IMG/VR virus record: IMGVR_UViG_3300036760_000306
Location: 52,458 to 116,457 of that record
DNA: 64,000 nucleotides
Source of the DNA: a virus
Direction: 5' to 3' (one strand)
The stretch's first letter is position 1. Each line of letters starts with the position of its first letter. The notes under the pieces are model-generated. The model saw only the letters and a program-made list of their open reading frames with translations. It was not told where the DNA came from and made no database searches. Both the position numbers and the translations under genes were made by a program. Positions 1-63,593 of this stretch are shown here, piece after piece.

Positions 1-297
1 CAGCAACGAGCCCGTTTGCAAAGAACGGCATCTGGGGGAGTATCGACGGCAACCAACAGCTTCAATACTAAGCCAGGTAAACGGGTGACCCTGAGTGCCT
101 ATCACTCCCTCGCGGGTGACTTTGAAGGTGTAGCGGAATCCGCTGTGCCTTATGTGTACGCCCCCAAGAAGTTCAAAGAACTGGCTCCCACCATCTATGC
201 AGCGGTGGCGAAATGGTTCAAGGGGGCACACGTCCGATATGCTGGGGATTCCTTTGCTAGCAATCCCATAGGGGAAGTCGAGGCGGCGCTGTGGTGA
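1..297 (+). CDS. 3' end of an unrecognised protein
   Basis: The reading frame is open from the first base of the window, so the gene starts upstream; about 98 codons are visible. The sequence is soluble-looking, rich in Ala, Lys and Tyr, with no motif I recognise. Its stop overlaps the start of the polyvalent gene by 7 nt, so the two are probably translated together. Confidence 0.6.
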   Translation, partial: QQRARLQRTASGGVSTATNSFNTKPGKRVTLSAYHSLAGDFEGVAESAVPYVYAPKKFKELAPTIYAAVAKWFKGAHVRYAGDSFASNPIGEVEAALW

Positions 298-3200
298 TCC
301 AAGCACGAGTAGCAGAGCGCTTCGTTAGGGTGTCGGCGTACTCCGAAGACACCCTAGAGGTTGTTGCGGCCGGTCTTGCTCTACTGATCGCACAGAACTA
401 CATCGTCACCAATCCCTTCTTCGATGAGAAGGAGATCCGAACCTACCTGCTGTTGCGCAAGCAGTTCCACGGGGACTTCGTTCAAGCGTGCCTGGACCTG
501 GCGAATGCCTTTGAAGAGGGCCAGTTCGGGCAGAGCGTGCAACCGGCTGTCCCAGCTCTACGGGCTATTGGGCATCTTGGGGTCAAGCAGGATCAGCAAG
601 CGATCCGACAACTCGCGAGAGCATTCCGAGGACTCAAGCACCTCAAGTACAAGGATGTCGAGAACCCGAAGCTCATGCGGCTCATCCTGATGGCCCGCAG
701 ACTTGATGTCACCGCCCCGATCGACGCATGGTCGTCCGGTGGCAGGGATATCAAGGATTTCCTGGAGAACCTGGTCAAGATCCCAGCAGTGCCCACGAGG
801 CTCCGAACACTTCTTCGTAAAGTCATTAAGATGCCTGTGCCCGGCAGTACACTCACCGAGAACGCCAATCCGGGTGCTTGGTTTGAGATGCCTGCTGAGG
901 AGAAGCAGAATCTTCGGGAGTTGACTGAGAAAGTTGAACAAGAGCAGCTTGACATCTGGGAGAAGCACAAAGACTCGGATGCCAATGAGCGCATGGCCGC
1001 TTACCAGAGTGCGGCTCGACGGCTCCAGAAGATTCAGAGCATCGCGGGTGTGAACGTTGGGATCATCAAACGCGAGGATAAGGTCCCGCTCGATGCCTTG
1101 CTGAAGAAAGAGTCGGGGCTCGAAACCGATGGGCCTACCGAGTACACGCGACTCAAGCTTGAGGACTATATCAAGAAGATGGGTACCTACGGTGCCCAAC
1201 GGAAAGAAGGCGACCCCCTTCCTCGTGAGATCAGCAAGCTGCTGACCAGCCTTCGTAAGGCTAAGACGTTCCCAACGATGCAGCGCGTGATCAAAGACGC
1301 GGTGGATCGTCAAGTGCTGGGCCGTGGGGCTGTCGAGGACGTGGACCAAATCCTCAAGCAGGCGAACAAGAACCGGGCGTTGAAAGAGGGCAAGCCCCTT
1401 ACGCCACTTCAGTTCAGCCCACAAACATTGGAGCAGTTCAAGGCAGCGCACGACACGGGACCTGTGGAGTTCGACCCTGACTTCACGGAAGACGAGAAGC
1501 AGCAGTTGCTGGGCCGGGTTTCACGGGCCATCAGTGACTTGGAGGGTGTCTACGGGGAGGGCTTCTGCGGTAAGCATGCCAAGAAACTCGCGTTCCGTTT
1601 CAACAAAGGGTACAGCGGGATGGCATCCGCTCACTACTTCACGTGGGACGATCGCAAAACGTGGCAACCCAGGGTGACGTTCGGTCCGGAGTACGAAGGA
1701 CTCTTGGCTCACGAGCTGTCGCACTACCTTGAGGACTTGCTGGCGTACCAGATCCAGAAGCAGACTGAACCTGAGCGTATCGAGGCCCTCAAGATCAAAG
1801 GGATCGAGGGCGGCCCGGGTGTTCTGTTTTCCAACACAGGCGTACCCTTGAGTCGCTTCGCTGAGGCGGGTTCCCTGGCGAGCTATCGGGACCACCTGGG
1901 CAAGACGATCCCAGAGTTCGTTGATTTCATCGACGCTGTACTGGCCACACCGGACTACAAGCGCTGGGAGGACAAGCTTGGATCGGCTTACGACTCAGCG
2001 CTGCCCAAGGCGATCAAGGCGCTGACCGGCATGAACTATTACGACCTGCCCAAAGATCACCCGTATTACAGTCTGATCGACAAAGCACGGTACCGCTCTG
2101 ATCTACCGCCGGAAGTAAACGCCGAGGCACAGAAGCAGTACAAGGCTATGATGGGCGGCGACGATCGCAAGCTCAGTTACTACAACAGCTCCACCGAGGT
2201 TTGGGCCCGGATGTGCGAGCAGTACGTATACAACCGGCTTATCGACGCGGGGATCTCAAATCCGTGGCTCACTCAGATGAACTACGAGGATGATGTTTTC
2301 ATGGACGAGAAGACCTTCGATACCAAGCTACGTCCTATCATGGACAAGATCTTTGCCAAGCTGAAAGGCCGTAAGCTTATTGCAGGAGTTCCGATGAGCC
2401 CCCTACGTGAACGACTAGCGGACCGCTTCCTACTCGTGGCCCGAGTGGCGGCCCGCTACAAAGAGGCAAAGTACAAGAGCAAAAAAGTAGTGCCCAAAGC
2501 CAGCGGCAAAGGCACTACTGAGGTGTTGGTCTACTCGGATCGGCAGATAGCCCTACGTAAAAGCAAGAAAAGCAAGCGCCTTCAGAAGCTCAGTGGGCAC
2601 ATCGACAAGATGATGGCCAAGGTCAAGAAGGACTTGACCTCTAGTGATCAGAAGACTGCACGTGTTGCGCTCGCCATAATGTTGATTAATGAAACGTACG
2701 AGCGCGTTGGAAATGATACGAGTGCTGCGGGCGAGAACTCAGACACGGATTCCACCCCGCACCTTGGGGTGACCGGGTGGTCAAAAAAGAACATCAAGTT
2801 CACGGGCGGTAAAGCCAAGATCTCCTACCGTGGCAAGAGTTCTGTAGACCATGTGAAAATCGTGGAAGACCCGGCGACGGTCAAGGCACTCAAAAAAGCC
2901 TATGACGAATGTGAAGGGGACAAGGACTGCATCTTCCACTGGGCAGATGGGAAAGTCACGGCCAAAGAAGTCAACGAGGAGTTACGATCCTTTGGGGATT
3001 TGACTGCCAAGGATTTGAGGGGGTGGCACGCCAACAGGCTCATGAAAGAAGAGCTGGCTAAGGTACGAAAAGGCAAGCTACCCGAGGATAAGAAGGAGCG
3101 GGAGAAAAAGCTCAAGGATGAGTGGAAGAAAGCCTTGGAGGTCACGGCGGAGGAAATCCAGCACGAACCTGGCACCCTTCAGGGACAATACCTGGTAGAC

Positions 3201-3476
3201 TCAATGCGTGAACAATACCTGAAGGACGGTACCATAATCGAACGTTTGGATAAGACCGCCATGCTTGACAACTGCGTAATTGACAGCCCCGCATCGGTCT
3301 TTGACCAAGTTGGGATCAAGCGGGGTGACCATTACACGATCACCTGTGATGGTTGCGGAGCTGTGACTCGTTGTCGTTGTGATGGACCTAGAATTGAGGC
3401 TCACGTTCCTTCGTGTCCCGAGTGTGCCCCGAGTGCTCTTTCTGTCCGCTATCAAGTCTCAGAAGGTGCTGGGTAG
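291..3476 (+). CDS. Polyvalent protein: metallopeptidase plus topoisomerase IB
   Basis: A 1061-residue multidomain protein starting GTG. The first ~430 residues are helical and unrecognised. Around residue 473 lies HELSH, a zinc-metallopeptidase HExxH motif. Residues ~800-970 carry a type IB topoisomerase core: ERVGN (Arg), a basic KISYRGKSS strand (Lys), KDLRGW (Arg) and a QHEPGTLQGQY segment with the His and likely nucleophilic Tyr. The C-terminus is a Cys-rich zinc knuckle (CDGCG, CRC, CPEC). Linking unrelated enzymes this way is typical of phage polyvalent proteins that are packaged and injected; I infer that role. RVAERF-type peptides occur at the N-terminus and again at ~702-725, just before the topoisomerase part. 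An AGGAG 5 nt before ATG 2394 could start a separate ~360-residue topoisomerase product. Confidence 0.85.
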   Translation: MVIQARVAERFVRVSAYSEDTLEVVAAGLALLIAQNYIVTNPFFDEKEIRTYLLLRKQFHGDFVQACLDLANAFEEGQFGQSVQPAVPALRAIGHLGVKQDQQAIRQLARAFRGLKHLKYKDVENPKLMRLILMARRLDVTAPIDAWSSGGRDIKDFLENLVKIPAVPTRLRTLLRKVIKMPVPGSTLTENANPGAWFEMPAEEKQNLRELTEKVEQEQLDIWEKHKDSDANERMAAYQSAARRLQKIQSIAGVNVGIIKREDKVPLDALLKKESGLETDGPTEYTRLKLEDYIKKMGTYGAQRKEGDPLPREISKLLTSLRKAKTFPTMQRVIKDAVDRQVLGRGAVEDVDQILKQANKNRALKEGKPLTPLQFSPQTLEQFKAAHDTGPVEFDPDFTEDEKQQLLGRVSRAISDLEGVYGEGFCGKHAKKLAFRFNKGYSGMASAHYFTWDDRKTWQPRVTFGPEYEGLLAHELSHYLEDLLAYQIQKQTEPERIEALKIKGIEGGPGVLFSNTGVPLSRFAEAGSLASYRDHLGKTIPEFVDFIDAVLATPDYKRWEDKLGSAYDSALPKAIKALTGMNYYDLPKDHPYYSLIDKARYRSDLPPEVNAEAQKQYKAMMGGDDRKLSYYNSSTEVWARMCEQYVYNRLIDAGISNPWLTQMNYEDDVFMDEKTFDTKLRPIMDKIFAKLKGRKLIAGVPMSPLRERLADRFLLVARVAARYKEAKYKSKKVVPKASGKGTTEVLVYSDRQIALRKSKKSKRLQKLSGHIDKMMAKVKKDLTSSDQKTARVALAIMLINETYERVGNDTSAAGENSDTDSTPHLGVTGWSKKNIKFTGGKAKISYRGKSSVDHVKIVEDPATVKALKKAYDECEGDKDCIFHWADGKVTAKEVNEELRSFGDLTAKDLRGWHANRLMKEELAKVRKGKLPEDKKEREKKLKDEWKKALEVTAEEIQHEPGTLQGQYLVDSMREQYLKDGTIIERLDKTAMLDNCVIDSPASVFDQVGIKRGDHYTITCDGCGAVTRCRCDGPRIEAHVPSCPECAPSALSVRYQVSEGAG
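2384..2396 (+). promoter_or_regulatory. Internal ribosome-binding site and start inside the polyvalent gene
   Basis: AGGAG at 2384-2388, a 5-nt spacer, then an in-frame ATG at 2394 that begins a second copy of the basic VAxRY-type peptide. This is a textbook Shine-Dalgarno arrangement and decides a possible alternative product containing only the topoisomerase IB and zinc domains. Confidence 0.5.
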
Positions 3477-45718: not shown

Positions 45719-45894
45719 CGGCCGTACTTGCGGTCCAGGTAGTCCCCGTCGTCATCGGGCTCAGGGATCGGTTCTTCCGCCACCTTGGGCATCCGTTGCT
45801 GGAGCCAATCGGCAGCGTCGTAAAGGCCGTTCTGGTTTGCCAACCCAAGAAGCGTTTGGAGTTGGTCCGTGACTGAGCGTTGATCTGGCATCAT
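45715..45894 (-). CDS. Small acidic protein
   Basis: 59 residues (QLQTLLGLANQNGLYDAADWLQQRMPKV, then acidic PEPDDDGDYLD). Starts exactly 5 nt after the class A promoter 9-mer, and its stop overlaps the next ATG. This helical type is common in phages; function unknown. Confidence 0.7.
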   Translation of the reverse strand: MMPDQRSVTDQLQTLLGLANQNGLYDAADWLQQRMPKVAEEPIPEPDDDGDYLDRKYGR

Positions 45895-45899
45895 GGTGT

Positions 45900-45927
45900 T
45901 ACTACACCGTGGCTCAGGGAAACTCTA
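45900..45927 (-). promoter_or_regulatory. Phage promoter, class A (minus)
   Basis: TAGAG, 14 nt, GGTGTAGTA, 5 nt, ATG 45894. Forms a near-perfect inverted repeat with the divergent copy at 45968-45995. Confidence 0.75.
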
Positions 45928-45967
45928 GTGTTCCGGTGGAATTCAGCCTGGGAGGTTGAAAGCAGAC

Positions 45968-45995
45968 TAGAGTTTCCCGACGCTCCGGTGTAGTA
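45968..45995 (+). promoter_or_regulatory. Phage promoter, class A (plus)
   Basis: TAGAG (45968-45972), 14 nt, GGTGTAGTA (45987-45995), 5 nt, ATG 46001. Mirror image of the minus-strand copy. Confidence 0.75.
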
Positions 45996-46000
45996 CCAAC

Positions 46001-46279
46001 ATGTACCGCACCACCGAAGAACTGGCAACGGACCTCGTGGACGACGATCGCACCTCGTTCACGTTCACGGAAGCAGACGAGTTGGCTAAGACGCTTCAGG
46101 TTTCAACCGCCAAGGTGATCCGTGATCTCAAGGCGTACGGGTTGACCTACTGTGGTCGTCCGAACGAAAAGTCGGTTCGCGGGTTCACCTCGAACTCGCA
46201 TGATCGCTGGAGCGGCAATCCGTGCAGCGGTGGATCAGGGTGGGAACAAGTTACGGGGTTTGCGGGTCAGGAAGGCTAA
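46001..46279 (+). CDS. Small HTH-type phage protein
   Basis: 92 residues. TFTEADELAKTLQVSTAKVIRDLKAYG is a helix-turn-helix; the second half (SVRGFTSNSHDRW..GGSG..GFAG) is a Gly/Ser-rich tail I recognise from small phage proteins of unknown role. Leaderless start after the class A promoter. Confidence 0.72.
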   Translation: MYRTTEELATDLVDDDRTSFTFTEADELAKTLQVSTAKVIRDLKAYGLTYCGRPNEKSVRGFTSNSHDRWSGNPCSGGSGWEQVTGFAGQEG

Positions 46280-46280
46280 T

Positions 46281-46406
46281 ATGACGGCCGAAGTGTCCAA
46301 CGTGTGGTCGCTCTGGAGCCCCATGCCCTGGGTCTGCGCAAATGGTCTTGGCTTTGGTGCTGTTATGCGCTACAAAGCGAAAAAGGGTGGGTTTGAGGCG
46401 AGGTAG
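46281..46406 (+). CDS. Possible 41-residue ORF
   Basis: Starts 1 nt after the preceding stop and encodes a Trp-rich peptide (NVWSLWSPMPWVC) ending inside the left arm of the long hairpin. The sequence may be constrained mainly by the RNA; low confidence as a protein. Confidence 0.3.
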   Translation: MTAEVSNVWSLWSPMPWVCANGLGFGAVMRYKAKKGGFEAR

Positions 46407-46468
46407 TGACCCAGGGTTGAGACACCCCCCGTCTTGGCCGGTCGCTATCTCGCCTCAAACCTACCCTT
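46383..46468 (+). ncRNA. Very long RNA hairpin
   Basis: Outer stem of 29 bp (46383-46411 with 46440-46468) and inner stem of 9 bp (46415-46423 with 46431-46439), separated only by a 3-nt bulge (46412-46414), closed by a 7-nt C-rich loop. All six departures from Watson-Crick pairing are G-U wobbles when read as plus-strand RNA and would be A-C clashes on the other strand, so RNA pairing on this strand appears selected. No T-run follows. Could be a stable small RNA, processing site or decoy. Confidence 0.7.
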
Positions 46469-47029: not shown

Positions 47030-47413
47030 ATGAGTAATGCGCCCAAGATGATAATTTGCGTACGTAAAGATCTCAACATGCGAAAGGGCAAGATCGCGGC
47101 CCAAACGGCGCACGCATCCATGTCCTTCCTGGTCAAAGGAAACCTCGCGGGTGCTGTGCTGCACAAGGAGCTGACCGAGGTTGAAGCCGCGTGGCTTTCG
47201 GGTTCGTTCACAAAGATCGTCGTGTACGTTAATTCTGAGGCCGAGCTTCTGGCCCGCATCCAAGCAGGGGAGGCCGCTGGGGTCACGGTACACCCCACCC
47301 ACGATAACGGACTCACCGAGTTCCATGGGGTCAAGACGCTCACGTGCGCTGCATTCGGACCTGATCTGCCTGAGGTGTTGGATCCCCTAACAGGGGGCCT
47401 ACCCCTGTTATGA
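47030..47413 (+). CDS. pth2: Peptidyl-tRNA hydrolase, PTH2 family
   Basis: 127 residues. KMIICVRKDLNMRKGKIAAQTAHA at the N-terminus and THDNGLTEFHGVKTLTCAA near 95-113 match PTH2, which frees tRNA from stalled peptidyl-tRNA. This family is normal in archaea and eukaryotes, and occurs sporadically in bacteria and phages. Links to cca as a tRNA-recycling function. Confidence 0.88.
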   Translation: MSNAPKMIICVRKDLNMRKGKIAAQTAHASMSFLVKGNLAGAVLHKELTEVEAAWLSGSFTKIVVYVNSEAELLARIQAGEAAGVTVHPTHDNGLTEFHGVKTLTCAAFGPDLPEVLDPLTGGLPLL

Positions 47414-61343: not shown

Positions 61344-61515
61344 GCCTGTACCACACCGGGGCTCGGGAAAACTCTACTGAGCCCTCCGCTTCCAACGCAA
61401 GAAGGGTACGTCGAATCGTCGGCAACGAGCACTTGGCGATCTCTCGTGTAGTCTTGTAGTCCCAGGCAGCAGTCGAGGCACACAAGGCCCGCTTCAATAG
61501 GGTGGCGTTGGTCAT
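61318..61515 (-). CDS. Small winged-helix protein
   Basis: 65 residues (LLKRALCAST.. TTREIAKCSLPTIRRTLLALEAEGSVEFS), a DNA-binding winged helix. Its 3' end contains the class A promoter and runs into the next gene. Confidence 0.65.
   Translation of the reverse strand: MTNATLLKRALCASTAAWDYKTTREIAKCSLPTIRRTLLALEAEGSVEFSRAPVWYRHEQLIQNR
61349..61376 (-). promoter_or_regulatory. Phage promoter, class A
   Basis: TAGAG, 14 nt, GGTGTGGTA, 5 nt, ATG 61343. Lies inside the upstream winged-helix gene. Confidence 0.75.
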
Positions 61516-63565: not shown

Positions 63566-63593
63566 TACCACACCTCAGTCACGGGAAACTCTA
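63566..63593 (-). promoter_or_regulatory. Phage promoter, class A
   Basis: TAGAG, 14 nt, AGGTGTGGTA (9-mer shared part AGTGT/GGTGT), 5 nt, ATG 63560. The rest of the gap to 63707 holds a weak CGGGGC..GCCCCG inverted repeat and nothing else I can support. Confidence 0.75.

What the first reader, a model, noticed from the sequence alone, without database searches (positions are those of the whole stretch)
46383..46468. 86-nt, 38-bp hairpin whose mismatches are all G-U on one strand
Reading plus-strand RNA, 29 outer and 9 inner base pairs form with one 3-nt bulge and a 7-nt loop; three outer and three inner positions are G-U wobbles, none are clashes. On the complementary strand these would be A-C mismatches. 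This bias is what selection for an RNA (not DNA) stem produces. It is far longer than a terminator and lacks a T-run. Candidates: a stable phage small RNA, an RNase III processing site, a double-stranded-RNA decoy, or an end-protected transcript.
Basis: seen in the sequence. Interest (0 to 1): 0.78.

Follow-up and report, generated by a model that had tools for sequence, protein, structure and literature searches.

The report
Conserved strand-specific phage RNA hairpin
A large bacterial virus carries a long, almost perfect RNA hairpin between its genes, and a related virus keeps the hairpin by matching changes on both sides of the stem, which suggests that the folded RNA itself does a job, probably as a site where the host's RNA-cutting enzyme acts.

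Summary
The hairpin is real and exactly as described: window 46383-46468, 29+9 pairs, 3-nt bulge, 7-nt loop, -66.3 kcal/mol, z -10.7, six G-U and no A-C on the plus strand. It is the strongest palindrome in the 116-kb phage record. One related phage contig (208 kb) has a homologous hairpin, also that record's strongest palindrome. Between the two, 8 of 9 changed core pairs remain standard pairs (two compensatory, six G-U swaps, one broken). All eight wobble positions found are G-U on the plus strand. Stem letters are 83% identical, against 56% at fourfold-degenerate sites of nearby genes. The conserved unit is a ~44-nt 5' box plus the hairpin. It is single-copy and ends where the hairpin ends, and the immediate gene neighbours differ in the two phages. 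It is non-coding, has no T-run and matches no Rfam family. I read it as a functional plus-strand RNA element, most likely an RNase III-type processing or stability site in a phage operon. A small-RNA gene of its own is the main rival. The RNA-level claim is about 0.85 likely; the specific mechanism only about 0.42. Only two sequences exist and no expression data were available. It is a new, lineage-restricted member of a known kind.

The parts
46383..46411 (+). 5' outer arm of the hairpin (29 nt)
46412..46414 (+). 3-nt bulge CAG on the 5' side
46415..46423 (+). 5' inner arm (9 nt, GGTTGAGAC)
46424..46430 (+). 7-nt loop
46431..46439 (+). 3' inner arm (9 nt, GTCTTGGCC)
46440..46468 (+). 3' outer arm (29 nt); no T-run follows and sequence conservation with the relative stops here
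46339..46382 (+). conserved 5' box (33 of 44 letters identical in the relative), found only in front of this hairpin. Function unknown: a small hairpin (46352-46378), or a weak promoter-like TTGGCT-17-TACAAA that would start transcription at the hairpin base
45966..46003 (+). phage promoter-like motif and start of the upstream plus-strand gene; candidate source of a transcript running through the hairpin (inferred)
46001..46279 (+). 92-aa upstream gene (82% identical in the relative)
47030..47413 (+). peptidyl-tRNA hydrolase 2 gene, the nearest conserved plus-strand gene found downstream of the hairpin in both phages

Best explanation
A plus-strand RNA element of a large tailed phage. Shown by sequence comparison: the plus-strand transcript would form a 38-bp hairpin, and this fold has been kept by selection in two diverged phages. 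Inferred: the hairpin is transcribed within a plus-strand gene row that starts at the phage promoter-like motif at 45966. As a double-stranded stem well above the RNase III minimum, it is bound and cut by the host's RNase III. The cut works as punctuation between variable cargo genes, separating upstream and downstream messages and setting their stability, as phage T7's early-RNA sites do. The conserved 5' box is either part of the folded RNA or a promoter giving a second transcript that begins at the hairpin base.
For: Fold strength and strand difference. Homolog with 8 of 9 changed core pairs kept and two fully compensatory; random placement of the same substitutions keeps as many pairs in 0.045% of trials; structure register clear against slid controls, 100% of cells paired against 35-51%. 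Eight wobble positions, all G-U on plus, two-sided sign P 0.008. Stem identity 60/72 against fourfold-site identity 335/597, P 6e-6. The G-U strand is the coding strand of the surrounding gene row in both phages, downstream of a plus-strand promoter-like motif. The stem exceeds the 22-nt RNase III target minimum quoted in PMC5371410, which also lists T7, T3 and lambda as RNase III targets. The phages have no detected RNase III of their own, so the host's would act.
Against: Only two sequences. No transcript, cleavage or host data. The tool's 3'-letter shuffle has little power with two rows and is not significant (63 of 500). A plain RNase III site would not obviously need a conserved 5' box. 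One pair (number 27) is broken in the relative. In the relative the gene just upstream of the hairpin might lie on the minus strand (77-aa ORF).
Confidence: 0.42

Rival explanations
1. An autonomous small noncoding RNA gene: the 5' box is its promoter (TTGGMT-17-TACARA) and the RNA starts at the hairpin base and consists mainly of the hairpin, acting in trans as a stable double-stranded RNA (regulator or decoy).
For: The conserved block is exactly box plus hairpin and stops at the hairpin's 3' base. Its immediate neighbours differ in the two phages, so it behaves as an independent unit. A promoter-like 17-nt spacing is kept in both phages and would place the start at 46382-46384 (sequence). 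The box occurs nowhere else in either genome.
Against: The hexamers are poor sigma-70 matches and the consensus scan does not report them. No terminator with a T-run follows. No trans target or partner protein is known.
Confidence: 0.33
2. An unusual transcription terminator or 3'-end stabiliser without a T-run for the upstream transcript.
For: It sits 104 nt after the stop codon of the upstream gene in this phage; a strong hairpin at a 3' end blocks exonucleases (general knowledge).
Against: No T-run; 38 bp is far longer than intrinsic terminators; in the relative different genes lie upstream; a terminator does not need the conserved 5' box.
Confidence: 0.12
3. A single-stranded-DNA structure on the plus strand (replication, recombination or packaging site) or a dyad for a dimeric DNA-binding protein.
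For: G-T wobble is also tolerated in single-stranded DNA, and the palindrome is the strongest in each record.
Against: The one-strand wobble bias speaks against a double-stranded dyad. No reverse transcriptase was detected. It lies inside a gene row rather than in a recognisable origin region.
Confidence: 0.1

Closest known systems
RNase III processing sites in early transcripts of phages T7 and T3, and RNase III targets of lambda (named in PMC5371410)
   Same: Long, mostly paired RNA hairpin between co-directional phage genes, on the coding strand, above the 22-nt RNase III target minimum.
   Different: 38 nearly continuous pairs; a conserved 5' box; no cleavage data; no sequence relation tested or seen.
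Intrinsic (Rho-independent) terminators
   Same: Hairpin after a coding sequence.
   Different: No T-run, stem several times longer, gene neighbours not conserved.
microRNA precursors and adenovirus VA RNA (Rfam)
   Same: Generic long-hairpin shape gives weak covariance-model scores.
   Different: All scores lie far below curated cut-offs; a shape match only, in a bacterial virus.

Membership tests
Phage RNase III processing site | Double-stranded RNA stem longer than about 22 nt | tested here: met
   38 pairs in the window, about 35 in the relative
Phage RNase III processing site | Lies within a co-transcribed phage mRNA | tested here: inconclusive
   Co-directional genes and upstream plus-strand promoter-like motif in both phages; no transcript data; possible minus-strand ORF beside it in the relative
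Phage RNase III processing site | RNase III-dependent cleavage in the stem | not testable with these tools
   Needs RNA from infected cells
Intrinsic terminator | Short G+C-rich stem followed by a T-run | tested here: not met
Retron msr-msd RNA | Adjacent reverse transcriptase gene | tested here: not met
   RVT_1 not found in either record; controls rang
MITE or dispersed palindromic insertion | Several copies in the genome | tested here: not met
   One copy in each of the two records; old enough for 17% stem divergence
Any Rfam 15 family | Score at or above the curated gathering cut-off | tested here: not met
   No match in the window; only shape-driven sub-threshold miRNA hits

The most novel reading that the evidence does not exclude
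A phage-encoded small RNA that consists essentially of one sealed 38-bp hairpin, made from its own promoter at the hairpin base, and that acts in trans by occupying a host dsRNA-binding enzyme or an RNA-sensing defence protein.
Probability: 0.1. Interest if true: 0.75.

Novelty: new member of a known kind. Interest (0 to 1): 0.45.

Why it matters
Long regulatory RNA hairpins are documented in few phages, mostly T7-like and lambda-like ones. A single-copy hairpin kept by compensatory change in an uncultured large-phage lineage would be a clean case of RNA-level selection in phages with no known functional RNAs of this type. It also gives a precise target for infection RNA-seq. If it proved to act in trans it would be a new phage tool against host RNA enzymes.

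Tried and rejected
Dispersed repeat or MITE: single copy in both records. Coding explanation: the reading frame across the box and hairpin is frameshifted and stops in one phage but not the other, and substitutions in the box do not favour third positions. Retron: no reverse transcriptase. Phage-encoded RNase III as partner: none found. A relation to the neighbouring 45892-46003 inverted repeat: that is a pair of promoter-like motifs. More homologs: pattern scans of viral contigs, covariance searches of 79 PTH2-bearing viral loci plus part of phage Mx1, and of ten fuller records including phage Mx1 and the 485-kb LR745208.1, found no third member. Small hairpin in the 5' box: strong in the window (z -3.8) but not the preferred fold in the relative (z -0.4), so left open. 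My first hand-typed structure for pair counting was out of register and was replaced. Literature searches with narrow terms returned nothing closer.

Full report
Observation. The hairpin at window 46383-46468 is exactly as described: 29 outer pairs, a CAG bulge, 9 inner pairs and a 7-nt loop, with six G-U pairs and no A-C or other clash on the plus strand. Its energy, -66.3 kcal/mol, lies 10.7 standard deviations below dinucleotide shuffles. The minus strand reaches only -50.9. A scan for ungapped palindromes over the whole record put this locus first.

Where it is. The window is part of a 116,457-base IMG/VR virus record (G000). Its genes (topoisomerase IB, nicotinamide phosphoribosyltransferase, tRNA nucleotidyltransferase, peptidyl-tRNA hydrolase 2, tail-type proteins) and its genome-wide relation to a 208-kb contig (81 best protein matches, mean 76% identity) point to a fragment of a roughly 200-kb tailed phage. 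The host is unknown. The nearest named records are distant: Myxococcus phage Mx1 for one enzyme (46%) and the uncultured 485-kb LR745208.1 for two large proteins (43 and 46%).

The homolog. The related contig IMGVR_UViG_3300022744_000022 carries the same element at L002:11598-11684. It too is that record's strongest palindrome, folds to -60.3 on plus and -49.8 on minus, and is single-copy. In both phages it lies between the same conserved genes, a 92-aa gene upstream and peptidyl-tRNA hydrolase 2 downstream, but the immediate neighbours are different cargo genes. So the element is not attached to one gene.

Covariation. Leaving out the two outermost pairs, which are not paired in the relative, 36 pairs can be compared. 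Nine differ. Two are full compensatory changes (G-C to A-U, A-U to G-C), six are one-sided changes between a Watson-Crick pair and G-U, and one is broken. Putting the same substitutions at random on matching letters keeps as many standard pairs in 0.045% of 20,000 trials. On the aligner's own alignment all 82 paired cells are standard, against 35-51% when the partner strand is slid by one to three columns. The shuffle offered by that tool has little power with two rows and is not significant (63 of 500). Eight pair positions hold a wobble in at least one phage, and all eight are G-U on plus (two-sided sign P 0.008). A double-stranded DNA dyad would not show such a direction. Single-stranded DNA could.

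Constraint. Fourfold-degenerate sites of neighbouring genes are 56% identical between the phages. Stem letters are 83% identical (60 of 72; P 6e-6). The 44 nt directly upstream are also conserved (33 of 44), while 100 nt on either side of the unit align no better than shuffled sequence. This box occurs only here in both genomes. It can be read as a small hairpin (one compensatory change, but not the preferred fold in the relative) or as a weak promoter TTGGMT-17-TACARA with its start at the hairpin base (not reported by the consensus scans). I could not decide between these.

What it does. Both phages have a plus-strand promoter-like motif upstream of the gene row, and the G-U strand is the coding strand of that row. 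RNase III needs about 22 nt of double-stranded RNA, and T7, T3 and lambda RNAs are known targets (PMC5371410). A 38-bp stem in a bacterial cell is thus a likely RNase III substrate, and the phages encode no RNase III that the Pfam model detects. My leading reading is therefore a processing or stability site between variable cargo genes (0.42). A small-RNA gene with its own promoter follows at 0.33, a terminator without T-run at 0.12 and a DNA site at 0.10. The claim common to the first two, and to part of the third, that the plus-strand RNA fold is under selection, I hold at about 0.85.

What is shown and what is inferred. Shown by computation: the fold, its excess over chance, the homolog, the pair-preserving changes, the wobble direction, the conservation excess, the single copy number, and the absence of a T-run, Rfam family, reverse transcriptase and phage RNase III. 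Inferred: transcription, RNase III action, punctuation, and the role of the 5' box. Depth is the main weakness: no third member was found in viral contigs by pattern, in PTH2-bearing phage loci by covariance model, in ten fuller records, in the phage collection by blastn or in plasmids.

Novelty. No family in Rfam 15 reaches its cut-off; the weak microRNA-precursor hits reflect shape only. I rate it a new, lineage-restricted member of a known kind (phage regulatory RNA hairpins).

Noticed in passing
window 45903-45927 (-), 45968-45992 (+), 61352-61376 (-), 63569-63593 (-); G001 115511, 116450, 163051, 163379, 169131 and others: A recurrent motif, cTAGAGTTTyCC-n7-CCGGTGTAGTAC, ends a few bases before an ATG in both phages. 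It looks like a phage promoter giving nearly leaderless mRNAs; the inverted repeat 45892-46003 is two of these head to head between divergent genes.
   Followed up: partly
L233, L271, L274, L283, L288, L293, L295 and others (Streptomyces): Streptomyces genomes carry several copies of a ~100-nt near-perfect palindrome beginning CTCGCCGGCGTTTGAGGCGCGGG with folding energies near -95 kcal/mol. Probably a known intergenic repeat; unrelated to the phage hairpin.
   Followed up: no
L251, L276, L279, L290 (Galactobacter), L294 (Arthrobacter): Nested double palindromes of TTTGAGGCG/CGCCTCAAA in Galactobacter and Arthrobacter contigs, several per genome in one MAG.
   Followed up: no
window 291-3476 (+): 1061-aa protein with a eukaryote-type topoisomerase IB core and an LPD1 domain and no PHROG match; a 46% relative lies in the 485-kb LR745208.1.
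   Followed up: no
LR745208.1 11061-11163 and 464636-464732: Two imperfect 42-nt inverted repeats in a distant relative share pieces such as ACCGATAGGG; possibly head-to-head promoters of that phage.
   Followed up: no
window 46281-46345 and L002:10888-11316: The short ORF after the 92-aa gene (VWSLWSP) resembles the start of a larger gene in the relative (LWSLWNP); perhaps the remnant of a deleted cargo gene.
   Followed up: no
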